The translations under genes and the position numbers were made by a program. DNA of 5,291 nt, from assembly GCA_023132075.1 (NCBI GenBank), contig JAGLYT010000119.1, forward strand, positions 1 through 5,291, written 5' to 3'. The notes below the pieces were generated by a model. It was given only the letters and a program-made list of their open reading frames with translations, ran no database searches and had not been told where the DNA came from. The DNA comes from JAGLHV01 sp023132075 [NCBI: bacterium] (lineage in GTDB: Bacteria; CBDUZB01; JAGLHV01). Shown here piece after piece: positions 163 to 5,291 of this stretch. The first letter of the stretch is position 1, and each line of letters begins with the position of its first letter.

Positions 163-184
163 AATGTCAAACATTTTTGACATT
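163..184 (+). promoter_or_regulatory. Perfect 9-bp dyad upstream of the lipoprotein gene
   Basis: AATGTCAAA (163-171) is the exact reverse complement of TTTGACATT (176-184), with a 4-nt spacer CATT. It ends 10 nt before the Shine-Dalgarno and 25 nt before the ATG at 210. As DNA it looks like a repressor or activator operator (core TGTCAA-N6-TTGACA); as RNA it would be a 9-bp hairpin in the leader. The right arm contains TTGACA, a perfect -35 hexamer, but no matching -10 at a position that would leave a leader, so I do not call it a promoter. Confidence 0.45.
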
Positions 185-194
185 ACTAAAAAAA

Positions 195-201
195 GAGGGG
201 G
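195..201 (+). promoter_or_regulatory. Ribosome binding site fixing the start at 210
   Basis: GAGGGGG lies 8 nt before the ATG at 210. It rules out the in-frame TTG at 177, which would place this purine block inside the gene and add an 11-residue polar extension ahead of a clean signal peptide. Confidence 0.75.
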
Positions 202-209
202 TATTTAAA

Positions 210-1118
210 ATGAATAAAATCAGAGTGTATTTATTGGCCGTTGTTTTGTTAGTAAGTTTCATTTCTTTAGGAATTTTTAGCTGCAGCAAGAAAAAGAAGC
301 TCACTTTAAGTTCGTTGGTAATTAGTGTAGTACCAAATCCGGCAGTGGTGACGGTAGACAGTAGCCAGACTTTTACTGCCACAGCTTTGCGTGACGGTGC
401 ACCGGTAAGCGTAGATTTTACCTGGTCGGTAAATCCCAGCACACTGGGGACAATAACTGCTGAAGGAGTATTTACTGCCGGGTCTAATTCCGGAGACGGA
501 ACGGTCGTTGCCTCTGCACAGGGAGACAGCGGTAGTGCCGAAGTGATCGTAAGTGGAGGATCGTTTAATTACTATGGTCTTCTTAGTGATACGTATACAA
601 CTCCTAGTATAAAATTTGATACGAATAATCCTCCTGATACCGATGGAGGGAAATTAGGTCTTTGGCCTGGTGCGCCTTTGCCTGTAATGGAAAGTGACGC
701 TACAACATTTACGGAAGGACCTGCAAGTACAAAATTTACTATTAGTAGTGGTTGGGCAGGTCTTTGGCTACAATTTGGTTATCCGACAGCTTTGGGTGAT
801 CTTATTCCACGACAGGGTAAAGATATGTCTGCTTATTCAGATGCTTATCTTAAGTTTGATGTGAAAACGAGTACGGAAGTTGTTGTAAGTGTTGAGTGGA
901 TAGATGAAGCTACCGGAAATAAAGATTCAGCAGCAAAGAAAATTAATGAAGATTTACTAATAGCAATGGATGATAATTGGCATCCTGTATCAATAGATCT
1001 TTCTCTTTTAACAGGTTCCTTGGGTTCAATCAATTTTAATAAAATTTGTGTACCTTTTGCGTTTTCAGCAGAAGGAGGAACTGTTTTTTGGATAGATAAA
1101 GTCCGTTGGGAAAAGTAA
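210..1118 (+). CDS. Surface lipoprotein with Ig-like domain and carbohydrate-binding-like domain
   Basis: 302 residues from the ATG at 210, chosen because of the strong Shine-Dalgarno at 195-201. Residues 1-24 are a lipoprotein signal peptide: MNKIR, a hydrophobic core, then a lipobox-like GIFSC with Cys25 as the expected lipidation site, followed by Ser at +2 and a KKKK tether. Ser at +2 would favour the outer membrane under the E. coli sorting rule, which may not hold here. Residues about 36-115 resemble a bacterial Ig-like (Big_2-type) domain, with VVPNPAVVTV, TWSVNPSTLGTI and GVFTA motifs. Residues about 118-302 look like a beta-sandwich of the galactose-binding/CBM kind: a long polar beta-rich stretch with GWAGLWLQFG, YLKFDVKT, WHPVSIDLS and the terminal VFWIDKVRW, a common ending of such modules. 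No catalytic domain is present, so a binding or adhesion role is likely; the ligand is unknown. It lies 54 nt upstream of the propeller gene on the same strand. G+C falls sharply after the Ig-like domain. Confidence 0.88.
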   Translation: MNKIRVYLLAVVLLVSFISLGIFSCSKKKKLTLSSLVISVVPNPAVVTVDSSQTFTATALRDGAPVSVDFTWSVNPSTLGTITAEGVFTAGSNSGDGTVVASAQGDSGSAEVIVSGGSFNYYGLLSDTYTTPSIKFDTNNPPDTDGGKLGLWPGAPLPVMESDATTFTEGPASTKFTISSGWAGLWLQFGYPTALGDLIPRQGKDMSAYSDAYLKFDVKTSTEVVVSVEWIDEATGNKDSAAKKINEDLLIAMDDNWHPVSIDLSLLTGSLGSINFNKICVPFAFSAEGGTVFWIDKVRWEK

Positions 1119-1172: not shown

Positions 1173-2795
1173 ATGAATAGAATAAGATATGTATTTTTAA
1201 TTTTTTTCTTTGTTTTTAGTTTTTTGATTTTCAATCATTCTTTAATCCAGGCAAAGTGGAAAATAGAAATACTTGATACAGAAGATGATGTAGGACAATA
1301 CACCTCTATTGCCATAGATAAAGATAATTATCCCCATATTAGTTATTATGATGTTACCAGTAGCGATCTTAAATATGTGTATTGGGATAACTCTTCTTGG
1401 ATACATAATATCGTGGATTCAATTGGTGATGTAGGCAAGTATTCTTCACTTGCTCTCAATACAGCTAATTGTCCTCACATTAGTTATTTTAACAATACTA
1501 ATCTTCATCTTAAATATGCTAAAAAGGTAAATTCTATTTGGTATATTGAAGAACCGGAAGGGGCAAGCGGTGGTCCGGATAGTTCAATCGCTCTTGATAC
1601 CAATGGGAATCCTCATATTAGTTTTTTGTATCTAGGTCCGCCCCGTCTTGGATATGCCTATTTGTATCCGAGTTATCCTTTTTCATGGTATACTAACTAT
1701 TCAATAGAAGTAAATAACACTGGTTATTATACTTCTATTGCCCTTAATAGTCAAACAGATGAGGTTTATATTAGTTATTACGATCTTGATAATGGTGATC
1801 TCAAATATGCCCGTAAGGAAGGTTTAAATTGGTATAAAGAAATAATTGATTCTGACTACGATGTTGGTTTATATACTTCACTTGCGCTTGATTCAGATAA
1901 TTATCCTTATATTAGTTATTATGATAATACCCATGGTGATCTTAAATATGCTTATCTAAATGGTTCAAGTTGGTCTATTTGTATTATTGATTCCCAGGAT
2001 AATGTCGGGCAATACACTTCACTGCAGATTGATTCCAATGATAATCCTCACATAAGTTACTATGATGCCTCTAATGGCCGTCTTAAATATGCCTATAAGA
2101 ATGGTTCTTCTCCCTGGGCTATTGAAATAGTTGATGAGGAAGGCTATGTAGGACAGTATTCTTCGCTTGCTTTAGATGAAAATGACCATCCGCATATTAG
2201 TTATTATGATGTAACTAACGCAGACCTTAAATATGCTAAGTGGGTTCCTGGTTATTTTATTAAGGGACATGTCAAAAACTCAGCAGGCGTAGGATTAGAA
2301 TGTATTAACTTAACTTTGTCTGGAGATGATTCAAGGACTTCCACTACTACAGATATAGGATACTATGAATTTCTCGATTTGCTTTCCGGTAATTATACTC
2401 TTACTGCTACTAAATCCGACGGGACAATTTCCTTTGAGCAGAAAAATTATTTACCGTTGGAGAATAACTTAGAGAATCAAGATTTTATTGGTGTGGAGAT
2501 TGAGGGTATAAAAAGAAAAATGGAAGTACACAATTATCCTAATCCTTGTCGTCGGGGAAAGGGAACCACTTTTGTTTATACCGTTGATAAAGAAAACAAT
2601 GTTTTGCTAAATATTTACACTGATGTAGGGGAATTTGTGAGAGGGGTAATAGATGTTCATTCTCTACCGGGTACTTATGAAGCAGAATGGAACGGGAAGG
2701 ATATTCATGGGAATCGGATGGAAGCGGGGTTATATTTTGTTGTTTTGAAAGTAGGAAATGAAGTGACAAAAAATGCCTTGGTTATTCTTCCTTGA
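1173..2795 (+). CDS. Secreted seven-repeat beta-propeller-like protein with C-terminal FlgD/T9SS-like sorting domain
   Basis: 540 residues. Residues 1-27 are a signal peptide (MNRIR, long F/I/L core, probable cut after SLIQA). Residues 29-358 are seven repeats of 47-49 residues, each starting at Trp29, 76, 123, 172, 220, 267 and 315, with consensus W-x-I-x-I-V-D-...-V-G-x-Y-(S/T)-S-L-A-L-D-...-P-H-I-S-Y-Y-D-...-L-K-Y-A; repeat 3 is the most divergent. Residues about 361-440 resemble a carboxypeptidase-regulatory-like Ig domain (IKGHVKNSAGVGLECINLTL, GYYEFLDLLSGNYTLTATK). Residues about 450-540 match the FlgD Ig-like / T9SS type A sorting pattern: NYPNPCR, VLLNIYTDVGEFVR, WNGKDIHGNRMEAGLYFVVLKVG. 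The repeats suggest a surface binding or scaffold protein; no enzyme motif is seen. The start has only a weak purine stretch (AAGAAAG, 1154-1160); an ATG at 1163 is out of frame and stops after five codons. It may be cotranscribed with the lipoprotein gene, as no terminator separates them. Confidence 0.9.
   Translation: MNRIRYVFLIFFFVFSFLIFNHSLIQAKWKIEILDTEDDVGQYTSIAIDKDNYPHISYYDVTSSDLKYVYWDNSSWIHNIVDSIGDVGKYSSLALNTANCPHISYFNNTNLHLKYAKKVNSIWYIEEPEGASGGPDSSIALDTNGNPHISFLYLGPPRLGYAYLYPSYPFSWYTNYSIEVNNTGYYTSIALNSQTDEVYISYYDLDNGDLKYARKEGLNWYKEIIDSDYDVGLYTSLALDSDNYPYISYYDNTHGDLKYAYLNGSSWSICIIDSQDNVGQYTSLQIDSNDNPHISYYDASNGRLKYAYKNGSSPWAIEIVDEEGYVGQYSSLALDENDHPHISYYDVTNADLKYAKWVPGYFIKGHVKNSAGVGLECINLTLSGDDSRTSTTTDIGYYEFLDLLSGNYTLTATKSDGTISFEQKNYLPLENNLENQDFIGVEIEGIKRKMEVHNYPNPCRRGKGTTFVYTVDKENNVLLNIYTDVGEFVRGVIDVHSLPGTYEAEWNGKDIHGNRMEAGLYFVVLKVGNEVTKNALVILP
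1257..2246 (+). repeat. Seven coding repeats of ~47 codons (propeller blades)
   Basis: Units begin at 1257, 1398, 1539, 1686, 1830, 1971 and 2115, each at a TGG codon, and run without spacers to about 2246. Similarity is mainly at protein level, but the HISYYD segment is conserved in DNA: the 20 bases at 1335-1354 (unit 1) are identical to 2193-2212 (unit 7). Unit 3 (1539-1685) lacks the YYD motif and reads HISFLYLGPPRLGYAY. Seven units with no remainder fits a closed seven-bladed propeller, which is inference from the count and unit length. Confidence 0.85.
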
Positions 2796-2804
2796 GTAAA
2801 AATA

Positions 2805-2844
2805 ATTCTTTAATAAATAATGTGAAGAAATAGTTTTAAAGAAT
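2805..2844 (+). repeat. 9-bp inverted repeat after the propeller gene
   Basis: ATTCTTTAA (2805-2813) is the exact reverse complement of TTAAAGAAT (2836-2844), with a 22-nt spacer. It starts 9 nt after the stop codon at 2793-2795. With a single G/C pair, a large loop and no T-run after it, it is too weak to call a terminator. It could be an mRNA 3'-end structure or chance in AT-rich DNA. Confidence 0.25.
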
Positions 2845-2857
2845 AAGGGTGTTTAAT

Positions 2858-2892
2858 AAAGGAAAAATATGTTTCTCTCGCTTACGGCATAA
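2858..2892 (+). other. Seven-codon mini-ORF with good ribosome binding site
   Basis: AAAGGA (2859-2863 is the core AAGGA) lies 5 nt before ATG at 2869, which opens MFLSLTA and stops at TAA 2890-2892. After the stop the same frame stays open to TAG around 2998-3000, overlapping the start of the barrel gene. The stretch 2872-2911 is visibly richer in G/C than its flanks. This could be a leader peptide, a remnant of a decayed gene or of an inserted element, or chance. Nothing shows that it is translated. Confidence 0.15.
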
Positions 2893-2968
2893 TTTTACCC
2901 TTCGGGCACGCAAAAACAAGATAGTTATTTTTATATTATTCCACCAATATTAATGTTCGAGAAAAGTG

Positions 2969-5167
2969 ATGAAAAAAAAAGCTATAGCTATAATAATTAG
3001 TTTGTTAACGGTGAGTAGTTTCGTTTTCAGTTCTGAAATGAAAGTGCCTGCCGGGGTGCAGGTGTCTGCGATGGGAGGAGCCGGGACTTCTTTGGTACGA
3101 GAAGAATCAGTTTATTACAATTCCGCAGCACTTGCTTTTTTTAAAATTCCTTCGGTAGTTACTTCCTGGCAAAGATGGTATGATTTTATTGATAAAGGAC
3201 AGATTATAGGGATTTTGCCCTGCTTTAAAAATATGACTGTAGGTATTTTCGATAGTTATTCGACTACGGAAAAAATAGATTGTTGGGATGAAGATAATAA
3301 TCGGATTGATTCTTCCCGTTTTTCTTCTAATTTAGTAAGTATGTCCGCAGGGTGGAGACTAATCAATAATTTGTCCGTAGGCGGAAGTATAAAATATCTT
3401 ACTGAAAACACTGATAATGAAGAGGTCTCTTCGGATGTTGCCGGAGATTTAGCCGTTTTTAGTCAGTACAAAAAAATGATAAATATGGGAGTTAATTGGC
3501 AAAATATCGGCGATAAGCAGGAAAGTGTAGTAAAGGTAGGCGTCTCTATATTGGATGAATCAGGAAAACTTTCGCCGTTTCCTACTGTATTTAGTTTAGA
3601 TTTAAATTATCCTCTGCAATTCAAATCTTATTTATCTTTCGGAATAGAAACATTTCTTTACTCAATATTATATGTCCGTTTGGGATACAGGACAGGGCCG
3701 TTGGACCTTGAAAGATTAGGATACTTGAACGGGTTAAGTCTTGGATTTGGGGTTAAACCTGTTCAGGAGAGTAATTGGCAATTAGATTATTCCTTTGTTC
3801 CTAACGGGGATTTGGGAGAGATGCATAAGGTGGGTTTGGGATATAAATTTGGGAAGAAGTTAAAACCGGCAGAAGAGGACAAAGAATATTTATCCTTGCA
3901 GGAAGATAAACTTGTTGGTGAGGGAGAAATAAAAGCAGAGGTTGTTTTTCAGGAAGGAATACAGTTAGCCCAACAGAAAAATTATTTAGAAGCAATACTT
4001 GCCTTCAAAAAGTGCTTAAAACAAAATTCGGATTATCAGGAAGCAAAGGATATGCTAAAAGAAATTACCGCTAAGCTGGATAAGGAAATTAATCTGGAAG
4101 GGCAGGATTCAATGATTTTTCAGAGTGTAAAAAAATATTATATAAAGGGTATTGGTGAATACAAAAGAGGTAATTTTGAGGGAGCAATTGTGGAATTTAA
4201 TAAAGTATTAAAACAAACCTTTCATCCTAAAACCGGGAAATATCTCAAACAGGCAAAACAACATCTTTCAATAATAGAAAACAGAAAACAAGCAAAATTA
4301 TATTTTCAGCAGGCTGAAAATTCAATTCAGGAAGGACGGTATTCTCAGGCAAAAGAAAAATTGGAAAAAAGTCTTCTCTGTTATCCTGAATATTTGTCGG
4401 CGAAGGAGTTATTAGAGCAGGTGTTGCTCAAGACAGAGGGAGAGCAGAAAATAAAAAAACATTTATCCAGGGGGAGAAAGAATTTTAATAAAAAAGAATA
4501 TGAGAAGGCTTTAATTAATTTTTATCATGTTTTGAGGCTTAATCCGGAAAATAAAGAATCTCTACAAATGGTGAGAAAGTGCGGGTTAAAAATCATAAAG
4601 ACGGATAAAGTAGAAGAGCTTTCTGAAAAGGCAAGGAAAGATTGTTTTGAAAAAGGGAAAATTCTTGAAAAAAAAGGGGAATATCAAAGAGCTGTTTATC
4701 AATGGGCAAAGATAATTATAAATCAACCAACGGACATAGAAGTGCTTAAAGAAATAAAGAGAGTTCATTACAAAGCACAAAAAAACAAAAAAGAAGAACA
4801 GCTTGTTTTAAAACAAGAAAAGGAAAAAATCAAGGACTACAATAAAAAAGCCGAAGAATTTTATAAAAAAGGTGAGTATAATTTTGCTATTGAATATTGG
4901 CAGAAGGTTTTAGATTTAGCTCCGGAAAATAAACAGGCGAAAGAAGGAATAAAAAAATCTGGTGAAAAAATGGAAAGAATGGCGGGTAACGGCGTGAATA
5001 TGAAGGTGGTGGAAGAATATTACAAACAGGGCTTGATTTATTATAATCAGGGAAAATACCGGGAAGCGATATTTGAATGGAAAAGAGTTTTAGATTTAGT
5101 GCCTGATCATGAAAAAGCAAAAGCAAATATAAAAGCGGTCGAAGAAAAAATGCAGGTGGATAGATAA
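2969..5167 (+). CDS. PorV/PorQ-like outer-membrane barrel fused to a TPR domain
   Basis: 732 residues from ATG 2969; a GTG at 2966 directly before it would add one residue. ATG is preferred because GAGAAAA (2959-2965) gives better spacing. Residues 1-21 are a signal peptide (MKKK, I/L/V core, FVFS). Residues about 22-296 match the PorV/PorQ (UPF0164, FadL-like) family: the N-terminal AGVQVSAMGGAGTSLVREES followed by YYNSAALAFF, then alternating strands, and the family-typical ending LGYRTG...GLSLGFGVK...WQLDYSFVPNGDLGEMHKVGLGYKF. Residues about 325-724 hold some seven TPR-like units (near 325-364, 389-424, 442-483, 496-534, 555-594, 623-664, 682-724) with signatures such as YNQGKYREAIFEWKRVLDLVP, plus a Lys/Glu-rich, possibly coiled-coil linker at about 600-622. 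Stand-alone PorV-type proteins end soon after the barrel, so the TPR half is an extension, presumably periplasmic and protein-binding. In T9SS, PorV shuttles cargo by its C-terminal domain; here substrate is unknown and hydrophobic-compound transport is an alternative. Confidence 0.9.
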   Translation: MKKKAIAIIISLLTVSSFVFSSEMKVPAGVQVSAMGGAGTSLVREESVYYNSAALAFFKIPSVVTSWQRWYDFIDKGQIIGILPCFKNMTVGIFDSYSTTEKIDCWDEDNNRIDSSRFSSNLVSMSAGWRLINNLSVGGSIKYLTENTDNEEVSSDVAGDLAVFSQYKKMINMGVNWQNIGDKQESVVKVGVSILDESGKLSPFPTVFSLDLNYPLQFKSYLSFGIETFLYSILYVRLGYRTGPLDLERLGYLNGLSLGFGVKPVQESNWQLDYSFVPNGDLGEMHKVGLGYKFGKKLKPAEEDKEYLSLQEDKLVGEGEIKAEVVFQEGIQLAQQKNYLEAILAFKKCLKQNSDYQEAKDMLKEITAKLDKEINLEGQDSMIFQSVKKYYIKGIGEYKRGNFEGAIVEFNKVLKQTFHPKTGKYLKQAKQHLSIIENRKQAKLYFQQAENSIQEGRYSQAKEKLEKSLLCYPEYLSAKELLEQVLLKTEGEQKIKKHLSRGRKNFNKKEYEKALINFYHVLRLNPENKESLQMVRKCGLKIIKTDKVEELSEKARKDCFEKGKILEKKGEYQRAVYQWAKIIINQPTDIEVLKEIKRVHYKAQKNKKEEQLVLKQEKEKIKDYNKKAEEFYKKGEYNFAIEYWQKVLDLAPENKQAKEGIKKSGEKMERMAGNGVNMKVVEEYYKQGLIYYNQGKYREAIFEWKRVLDLVPDHEKAKANIKAVEEKMQVDR
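3941..5146 (+). repeat. TPR-like repeat region of the barrel gene
   Basis: About seven TPR-like helix pairs at intervals of some 50-65 codons, wider than the 34 of tightly packed TPRs, so extra helices or linkers lie between units. The last two units are the closest to each other: AIEYWQKVLDLAPENKQAKEGI and AIFEWKRVLDLVPDHEKAKANI, with matching DNA TTTTAGATTTAG near 4908 and 5089. This suggests a relatively recent duplication at the 3' end. Confidence 0.75.
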
Positions 5168-5194
5168 GGGTAAAGACGAAGACAAAAATAATAC

Positions 5195-5224
5195 AGTCCA
5201 TAGTCCACAGTCGATAGTCCATAG
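5195..5224. repeat. Heptanucleotide tandem repeat, AGTCCAT family
   Basis: Four consecutive 7-bp units, AGTCCAT, AGTCCAC, AGTCGAT, AGTCCAT (5195-5222), plus a partial AG. It starts 27 nt after the stop codon of the barrel gene. Short 7-bp tandem arrays of this form are intergenic minisatellites; the unit length resembles the STRR heptamers described in cyanobacteria, though the sequence differs. Read on the minus strand, the array gives an open frame (MDYRLWTMD...) that is a repeat artefact and not a gene. Confidence 0.8.
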
Positions 5225-5240
5225 ATAAAAACTAACAGAA

Positions 5241-5268
5241 AGTTATGAGTTATTAGTTACAAGTTAAA
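5241..5268. repeat. Second heptanucleotide tandem repeat, AGTTATN family
   Basis: Four consecutive 7-bp units, AGTTATG, AGTTATT, AGTTACA, AGTTAAA (5241-5268). They share period and the AGT start with the AGTCCAT array but have a different core, so two related heptamer families sit side by side with a 16-nt spacer (5225-5240). Confidence 0.7.
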
Positions 5269-5278
5269 GACAAACAGA

Positions 5279-5291
5279 AGTCCATAGTCGA
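5279..5291. repeat. Third heptamer block, AGTCCAT family, cut by the window end
   Basis: AGTCCAT (5279-5285) followed by AGTCGA (5286-5291), the latter matching the variant unit AGTCGAT at 5209-5215. The array therefore resumes after the AGTTATN block and continues beyond the window. Both the AGTTATN block and this block are preceded by ACAGAA. Confidence 0.65.

What the first reader, a model, noticed from the sequence alone, without database searches (positions are those of the whole stretch)
1173..5167. Possible minimal T9SS-like pair: sorting-domain cargo next to a PorV/PorQ-like barrel
The propeller protein ends in a FlgD-like/T9SS-type domain (NYPNP...WNGKD..G...AGLYF), and the next gene encodes a PorV/PorQ-like barrel. 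In Bacteroidota, PorV binds the C-terminal sorting domain of T9SS cargo and passes it to the PorU sortase. Adjacency of the two types raises the idea of a dedicated export or surface-anchoring pair in a lineage that may lack full T9SS. The domain patterns are seen in the sequence; the PorV-cargo relation is established for T9SS; the pairing here is inference.
Basis: partly seen in the sequence, partly recalled or inferred. Interest (0 to 1): 0.6.

Follow-up and report, generated by a model that had tools for sequence, protein, structure and literature searches.

The report
Surface cargo paired with own barrel

Summary
Confirmed and extended. Gene B (1173-2795) is a lectin-like propeller with a C-terminal T9SS-type sorting domain (CTD); gene C (2966-5167) is a divergent PorV/PorQ-type barrel with a long TPR tail. 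The pair is one of many. In fetched loci of three congeneric genomes, 36 of 47 barrel genes whose upstream gene is visible are directly preceded by a CTD gene on the same strand (7 of 49 followed by one). In 13 genomes of 13 other families, 56 of 98 barrels examined have a CTD ending within 700 bp upstream; 0 of 98 have one on the opposite strand. The lineage carries a divergent SprA translocon. No PorU-type sortase was found in the window's genome or in one congener; the other has a short C25 protease. Motor genes were not detected, but without a positive control. So this is not a minimal pair replacing T9SS but, most likely, a T9SS variant in which type A-like cargo uses cognate PorV-like barrels, as type B cargo uses PorP/SprF in Flavobacterium. 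Tails with TPR, OmpA or LysM suggest the barrels also anchor cargo. Physical contact is untested. New variant of a known kind.

The parts
177..1118 (+). gene A: probable lipoprotein (lipobox-like FSC) with weak Big_2 and galactose-binding-like matches; 54 bp before B
   Evidence: ORF; Pfam Big_2 15 bits and Exop_C 17.1 bits, both under cut-off; lipobox read by eye. A similar lipoprotein ORF precedes the B ortholog in G002 (L039 199-1107)
1173..2795 (+). gene B: CTD cargo, 540 aa: signal peptide, propeller (res. 28-358), CarboxypepD_reg-like Ig (363-415), C-terminal sorting domain
   Evidence: the propeller model matches the PLL fucose-binding lectins of Photorhabdus, TMt about 0.73; signal peptide by eye
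2523..2792 (+). C-terminal sorting domain of B (last 90 aa)
   Evidence: TIGR04183 25.2 bits against cut-off 23; 17-member profile A2 best PDB hits PorZ 5m11 2.3e-7, FlgD 3osv 2.4e-5, PorU 6za2 6.3e-5
2966..5167 (+). gene C: PorV/PorQ-type barrel with TPR tail, 733 aa, signal peptide (by eye)
   Evidence: NF033709 E 3.2e-19; 28-barrel profile A7, which includes C, matches PorV 6h3i_F at 4.7e-31; TPR_2 1.8e-28
2966..3865 (+). barrel part of C (about residues 1-300)
   Evidence: not folded by AlphaFold2 (pLDDT about 20-33 over residues 1-320)
3932..5164 (+). TPR tail of C (about residues 323-733), inferred to be periplasmic
   Evidence: Pfam TPR families; helical repeats modelled with pLDDT mostly 67-91 from residue 321

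Best explanation
B and C are a cargo-carrier pair of a divergent T9SS. B is exported by Sec, its C-terminal sorting domain takes it through the SprA channel, and it is received there not by one general PorV but by the barrel encoded next door, C. Because no PorU sortase is evident, the CTD is probably not cut off; the cargo stays bound through it to its barrel, which thus acts as carrier and surface anchor, as proposed for PorZ/PorQ and for type B cargo with PorP/SprF. The TPR tail of C (OmpA or LysM in some paralogs) probably lies in the periplasm and docks the barrel to the translocon or cell wall, doing in one chain what PorE or PorW/SprE do as separate proteins in Bacteroidota. Shown: domains, recurrence and order of the pairs, SprA, lack of a detectable PorU in G000 and G002, fused tails. 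Inferred: physical pairing, uncut CTD, anchoring, tail location and function.
For: CTD identity. Barrel identity. Recurrent order CTD gene then barrel: 34 of 70 merged hits, 36 of 47 visible upstream neighbours against 7 of 49 downstream, nine of 36 pairs with overlapping ends. Other families: 56 of 98 barrels, 0 of 98 on the opposite strand, each of the 13 genomes with at least one. Pairs stay together: in 21 of 33 usable pairs the nearest barrel and the nearest CTD point to the same other pair; Mantel r 0.50 for 19 non-redundant pairs, 1 of 5000 permutations as high. SprA: hhalign prob. 100, E 1.7e-79 to SprAs that match 6h3i_A at 2.7e-185, nearly full-length profile hits in G001 and G002 and two pieces in G000. 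PorU: the C25 search finds none in G000 and G002 but strong hits (E below 1e-65) in 9 of the other 13 genomes searched. Tails: TPR_2 in 20 of 28, OmpA in 4 of 28 tailed barrels, LysM in one of 10 scanned singly. Cargo: subtilase, thermolysin-like and matrixin proteases, a glycosidase-like protein, beta-helix and laminin-G domains among 10 paired cargos of G000. Literature parallel: PMC12618676 (abstract and introduction read), PMC9143113 (abstract and discussion read), PMC10202324 (section 16 read).
Against: No complex was predicted and the barrel model failed. The window's own barrel is below the NF033709 cut-off, and in G002 two genes lie between the orthologs of B and C (5253 bp from CTD hit to barrel hit); in G001 the DNA upstream of the barrel is off the contig. 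48 of 82 merged CTD hits are not within 700 bp before a barrel. Pairing is not limited to PorU-less genomes: 25 of 32 without C25 against 31 of 66 with it, p 0.0045, but with the window's genus added p 0.21, so a link to sortase loss is not established. Mirror-tree signal is absent within G002 alone (r 0.11, 1075 of 5000 permutations as high) and elsewhere could reflect joint duplication; the window's own pair has different nearest partners for barrel and CTD. G020 and G029 have pairs but no convincing SprA. G001 has a C25 protease with apparently intact catalytic residues (by eye), cut by the contig end. No motor was found, so the energy source is unexplained.
Confidence: 0.6

Rival explanations
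1. Ordinary T9SS: the barrels are generic PorV/PorQ paralogs that serve all type A cargo; gene adjacency only reflects co-regulation, and a sortase and motor exist but lie in missing contigs or are too diverged.
For: SprA and many CTD cargos are present. G000 is only 87% complete. G001 carries a C25 protease. Pairing also occurs in genomes with C25 proteins (31 of 66). 48 of 82 CTD hits are not paired. The motor searches had no positive control.
Against: Type A CTDs are described as all recognised by the PorV shuttle in Bacteroidota (PMC12618676), whereas here there are 22-26 barrel hits per genome, mostly with the CTD gene first and with tight or overlapping spacing. G002 (97% complete) has no candidate in the Pfam C25 search.
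Confidence: 0.25
2. The C-terminal domain is only a structural FlgD-like Ig domain, and the barrels are FadL-type or unrelated outer-membrane proteins; the neighbours share a process such as glycan uptake but not secretion.
For: FlgD_ig is the best Pfam match of B's CTD (25.9 bits), and 10 of 17 CTDs match FlgD_ig at E 0.01. The G002 locus lies before sugar ABC transporter genes (read by eye). Toluene_X/FadL matches in 3 of 28 tailed barrels.
Against: TIGR04183 matches 17 of 17 CTDs at E 0.01 (14 of them chosen by PF18962, two by eye, plus the window's) and B's is over cut-off. The domain sits at the extreme C terminus of proteases, a glycosidase-like protein and lectin-like proteins. SprA is present.
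Confidence: 0.08
3. A SprA-independent two-partner route: the CTD protein is moved across or held at the outer membrane by its barrel alone, and SprA in some lineages is a separate matter.
For: G020 (10 of 11 barrels paired) and G029 (2 of 3) show the pairs without a convincing SprA by two profiles.
Against: SprA sequences diverge strongly (only 65 bits with TIGR04189 in G000), so absence may be a detection limit; FadL-type barrels are not known to pass folded proteins (recalled); SprA is present in the window's own lineage.
Confidence: 0.07

Closest known systems
Type B CTD cargo with cognate PorP/SprF shuttle (Flavobacterium johnsoniae SprB-SprF)
   Same: A cargo gene is followed directly by a gene for a FadL-type barrel; several barrels per genome; cognate pairing (PMC12618676 introduction read; PMC9143113 discussion read)
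   Different: Here the CTDs are type A-like (TIGR04183; only 4 of 17 match type B TIGR04131 at E 0.01) and the barrels are PorV/PorQ-type; many have fused TPR or OmpA tails; the F. johnsoniae pairs belong to a full T9SS with motor and sortase
PorZ with PorQ, and PorU with PorV, in Porphyromonas gingivalis
   Same: A CTD is kept uncut and stays bound to a PorV-like barrel (PMC10202324 section 16); PorZ is the best PDB match of the window's CTD family; PorQ is the best-scoring equivalog model for 7 of the 8 barrels scanned that lack an OmpA tail
   Different: PorZ and PorU are parts of the attachment machine; here the partners are varied cargos (proteases, lectin-like, glycosidase-like) and no PorU is evident in G000 or G002
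PorE-PorP-PG1035 complex (P. gingivalis)
   Same: Barrel plus periplasmic TPR/peptidoglycan-binding protein plus surface CTD cargo (PMC9143113 discussion read)
   Different: Here the TPR or OmpA part is fused to the barrel in one chain, and the barrel is of PorV/PorQ type
SprE/PorW, TPR lipoprotein of the extended translocon
   Same: Periplasmic TPR module docked to SprA near PorV (PMC10994853 passages read)
   Different: A separate lipoprotein in F. johnsoniae; homology of the tails to SprE was not tested
NCBIfam NF052325 'putative type IX sorting system protein PorV2'
   Same: A curated model which shows that extra PorV-like barrels are already recognised; 25 of 28 tailed barrels match it at E 0.001
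   Different: The eight scores seen are far below its cut-off (36-96 bits against 325), so these are not that equivalog

Membership tests
T9SS type A cargo (TIGR04183 / PF18962) | C-terminal sorting domain over curated cut-off | tested here: inconclusive
   TIGR04183 25.2 bits for the last 90 aa against 23 (met), 22.5 for the whole protein (just missed); PF18962 17.6 against 27 (not met)
T9SS type A cargo (TIGR04183 / PF18962) | N-terminal signal peptide and domain at the extreme C terminus | tested here: met
   CTD match reaches residue 539 of 540; hydrophobic N terminus read by eye, modelled as helix 2-20 (low confidence there); no signal-peptide predictor was available
T9SS type A cargo (TIGR04183 / PF18962) | secretion depends on the CTD | not testable with these tools
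   needs an export assay
PorV/PorQ family (NF033709) | score over 90 bits | tested here: not met
   window barrel 69.7 bits, E 3.2e-19: a homologous, divergent relative, not filed as a member by the curated rule; 44 of 70 merged barrel places of the three genomes pass it
canonical PorV (NF033710) | score over 250 bits | tested here: not met
   no match for the window barrel listed at E 10; best of the paralogs scanned 149 bits
complete T9SS | SprA/Sov translocon | tested here: met
   in G000 the gene is split over contigs C44 and C22
complete T9SS | PorU C25 sortase | tested here: not met
   none in G000 and G002; one short C25 protein in G001 (380 aa, cut by the contig end); strong hits in 9 of 13 other genomes
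complete T9SS | GldL/GldM motor | tested here: inconclusive
   none in G000-G002; GldL: 5 of 60 genomes with weak sub-cut-off matches; GldM: 0 of 16; no control genome rang
complete T9SS | PorK, PorN and PorP/SprF genes | not tested
type B CTD (TIGR04131 / CHU_C) | type B domain over cut-off | tested here: not met
   window CTD: CHU_C 22.4 against 27, no TIGR04131 match at E 0.01
FlgD Ig domain (PF13860) | score over 27 bits | tested here: not met
   25.9 bits alone, 23.9 in the whole protein

The most novel reading that the evidence does not exclude
A sortase-free branch of type IX secretion, spread over several distant bacterial lineages, in which each type A-like cargo is held at the surface for good by its own PorV-like barrel, and the barrel carries its own periplasmic tether (TPR, OmpA or LysM tail) to the translocon or cell wall; the general shuttle plus PorU of Bacteroidota would then be one derived form of an older one-cargo-one-barrel scheme.
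Probability: 0.3. Interest if true: 0.78.

Novelty: new variant of a known kind. Interest (0 to 1): 0.6.

Why it matters
Published work describes type A cargo as served by PorV and sorted by PorU. A widespread architecture in which type A-like cargos come with private PorV-like barrels, some fused to TPR or peptidoglycan-binding tails and present where no sortase is detected, would change how cargo selection and surface anchoring are thought to work and where T9SS came from. It also gives a ready rule for predicting cargo-carrier pairs in uncultured bacteria and a direct test: does each CTD prefer its neighbouring barrel.

Tried and rejected
AlphaFold2 for barrel C (three orthologs) gave pLDDT about 20-33 over residues 1-320, so no fold search was made with it. 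For protein B (two orthologs) the propeller was good but residues 412-540 were below 50, so the CTD fold was not judged from structure. PDB searches with the window barrel alone or with the two-row SprA alignment found nothing useful; wider profiles A3 and A7 did. Rfam found nothing in the window. Promoter- and terminator-like sites are near shuffle level (25 against 18.5, sd 4.1; 3 against 2.7), so co-transcription of B and C is not shown. GldM and GldL searches had no positive control. A paper cited elsewhere for T9SS in Cloacimonadota held no PorV or PorU in its text.

The idea that pairing marks sortase-less genomes was tested: 25 of 32 against 31 of 66 barrels (p 0.0045), but adding the genus itself (34 of 70, measured slightly differently) gives p 0.21, so it is not claimed. 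A first count from truncated hit lists gave only 15 of 118 with the CTD first and 0 with the CTD behind; it was replaced by the direct count. For that, 100 barrel places were fetched out of 205 matches (matches include pieces of one gene, and its list was cut): 33 places of the four C25-less genomes (three lower-scoring listed G031 places were left out) and the 67 best-scoring of the nine others; 2 of the 100 were dropped for lack of upstream DNA. These 13 genomes were chosen because they matched the window barrel by BLAST. In one search, 3 of 36 pairs were dropped for truncated barrels. The 62 barrels come from loci picked for holding a barrel or CTD hit; a few contigs with barrel hits (G000 C57, G001 C112, G002 C120, C169, C85, C33, C83) were not fetched. 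The 50 barrels include two frames of one frameshifted gene, and G000 contig C67 counts one barrel twice, because its ends overlap by 25 bp.

Recalled, not from a call: that FadL-type barrels have both termini in the periplasm and are not known to pass folded proteins.

Full report
What is in the window. Three genes lie on the + strand: A (177-1118, probable lipoprotein), B (1173-2795, 540 aa) and C (2966-5167, 733 aa). B has a signal peptide (read by eye), a propeller, a CarboxypepD_reg-like domain and a C-terminal domain. Its propeller model (residues 28-358, pLDDT mostly 70-91) matches the fucose-binding PLL lectins of Photorhabdus best (TMt about 0.73), which suggests a glycan-binding surface protein. 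C has a signal peptide (by eye), a region matching the PorV/PorQ family (E 3.2e-19) and a TPR array.

Is the C-terminal domain a T9SS signal or only FlgD-like Ig? The last 90 residues score 25.2 bits with TIGR04183 (cut-off 23) but 25.9 with FlgD_ig (cut-off 27); the whole protein scores 22.5 and 23.9. A profile of 17 such domains from the same genome finds PorZ (5m11, E 2.3e-7) first in the PDB, then FlgD (2.4e-5), PorU (6.3e-5) and the F. johnsoniae CTD in 8glj (1.5e-3). TIGR04183 matches 17 of 17 at E 0.01; of these 17, one is the window's, 14 came from a PF18962 search and two were added by eye, so this count is partly circular. The T9SS reading is favoured but rests on family evidence for this one domain.

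Is the pairing real? The own CTD profile and NF033709 find, after merging of pieces, 30, 20 and 32 CTD hits and 22, 22 and 26 barrel hits. A CTD ends within 700 bp upstream of the barrel on the same strand in 11 of 22, 11 of 22 and 12 of 26; about 0.1 each is expected from density. Seen from the other side, 48 of 82 CTD hits have no barrel behind them. In 74 fetched loci (681 kb) there are 62 barrels; 47 have a visible upstream ORF, and 36 of these are CTD genes on the same strand. Downstream the count is 7 of 49. Median spacing is 93.5 bp; nine of the 36 pairs overlap, seven of them by 4 bases. In 21 of 33 usable pairs the nearest barrel and the nearest CTD in the set point to the same other pair; for 19 non-redundant pairs the distance matrices correlate (r 0.50, 1 of 5000 permutations as high), as they do within G000 (r 0.51, 8 of 5000) and G001 (r 0.81, 0 of 5000), though not within G002 (r 0.11, 1075 of 5000).

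Wider distribution. From 13 genomes of 13 other families, chosen because they matched the window barrel by BLAST, 100 barrel neighbourhoods were fetched out of 205 family matches. Of 98 with enough DNA, 56 have a CTD ending within 700 bp upstream, and none has one on the opposite strand within 2.3 kb; each genome has at least one pair. Pairing is commoner in the four genomes without C25 proteins (25 of 32) than in the nine with them (31 of 66), but this contrast vanishes when the window's genus is added. So the pairing is a general feature of these PorV-type barrels in this sample, not a mark of sortase loss.

What else of T9SS is there? SprA: TIGR04189 gives weak colinear hits (65 bits in G000), but a profile comparison with eight SprAs gives probability 100 and E 1.7e-79 over 948 columns, and those SprAs match the solved F. 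johnsoniae SprA at 2.7e-185. The mixed profile, which contains the G001 and G002 sequences, finds nearly full-length SprA in G001 and G002 and two pieces in G000 that continue each other on contigs C44 and C22. LptE-like and LptF/G-like genes are neighbours (the LptF/G names are from reading the sequences). PorU: Peptidase_C25 is absent in G000 and G002; G001 has a 380-residue C25 protein, cut by the contig end, that starts soon after its signal peptide. G000 keeps only the last part of its ortholog on C257, plus a C25-like stretch inside a giant frame on C1. The same C25 search finds strong hits in 9 of 13 other genomes, so the method works. Motor: GldM (16 genomes) and GldL (60 genomes) gave nothing in the genus and nothing over cut-off anywhere, without any positive control. 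PorK, PorN, PorW and genome-wide PorP/SprF were not searched.

Barrels and tails. A profile of 28 tailed barrels matches PorV of the translocon structure (6h3i_F, 4.7e-31). In the three genomes 44 of 70 merged barrel places pass the NF033709 cut-off; the window's barrel does not (69.7 against 90) and is a divergent relative. Of 50 barrels with complete ORFs, 28 have a tail of at least 90 aa. Of these 28, 20 match TPR_2 and 4 match OmpA; single scans show LysM in one and polysaccharide-export/SLBB domains in another. In P. gingivalis the separate protein PorE (TPR, propeller, peptidoglycan-binding part) binds the PorP barrel, which binds the type B cargo PG1035 (PMC9143113, discussion read), and in F. 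johnsoniae the TPR lipoprotein SprE docks on SprA beside PorV (PMC10994853, passages read). Fusion of such parts to the barrel here fits a shared task; that is inference.

How it most likely works. In F. johnsoniae two type B cargos need a cognate PorP/SprF barrel whose gene lies directly downstream, an order described as common, whereas type A cargos use PorV (PMC12618676, abstract and introduction read). A review suggests that cognate PorV-like barrels may protect CTDs from cleavage, as for PorZ/PorQ (PMC10202324, section 16 read). The present loci look like this cognate scheme applied to type A-like CTDs and PorV/PorQ-type barrels. Without an evident sortase the cargo probably stays on its barrel. 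Shown: sequences, order, recurrence, SprA, missing C25 in G000 and G002, tails. Not shown: binding, uncut CTDs, tail location, energy source.

Cargo. Ten paired cargos from G000 include a subtilase, a thermolysin-like protease, a matrixin, a glycosidase-like protein, a beta-helix protein, a laminin-G protein and two Ig-domain proteins; two show no further domain. These are typical of secreted or surface proteins.

Limits. In G002 two genes separate the orthologs of B and C, so the window pair is not the tightest example. The three genomes of the genus are draft assemblies. The phylum of the lineage could not be named; no relatives between genus and domain level were returned. [quoted passage not shown] whether this lineage is in FCB is unknown.

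Novelty. I found no paper on cognate PorV-type barrels for type A cargo in nine searches of the held library, where I saw capped listings and abstract starts, and parts of the few papers named above. None of the papers listed for 'PorV2' held the word, though NCBIfam already names a PorV2 family. New variant of a known kind.

Noticed in passing
G000:C1 1-35308 (first 20 kb is L136): One open frame fills the whole 35.3-kb contig (11,769 aa without an end). Read by eye it holds repeated propeller-like blocks, a C25-like stretch and a methyltransferase-like stretch. CTD hits in G031 lie in frames of up to 9,114 aa. Giant genes.
   Followed up: partly
G020 and G029 (for example L153, L147): Genomes with many CTD-barrel pairs (10 of 11 and 2 of 3) but no convincing SprA by two profiles.
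   Followed up: partly
G000:C257 (L088) 5647-6597 and G001:C412 (L075) 4651-5791: A C25 protease with apparently intact catalytic residues in G001 survives in G000 only as its last part; it may be decaying in the genus.
   Followed up: partly
G000:C120 (L084 305-1924): A PorV-like barrel fused to polysaccharide-export (Wza-like) and SLBB domains.
   Followed up: no
G000:C67 (L065): The contig's ends overlap by 25 bp and a barrel gene reads across the join: a circular or tandemly repeated CTD-barrel unit, or an assembly loop.
   Followed up: no
window 5190-5291: Short direct repeats of the kind tccatagtcca after gene C (by eye); the protein frames after the ortholog in L039 suggest similar repeats there.
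   Followed up: no
L039 3269-7853 and 14889-18195: Genes between and after the B and C orthologs in G002: a membrane protein, a large VWA-like protein and a sugar ABC transporter set (names from reading the sequence).
   Followed up: no
SprA loci L074, L076, L062, L063: The SprA gene lies among LptE-like and LptF/G-like lipopolysaccharide transport genes (partly by eye).
   Followed up: no
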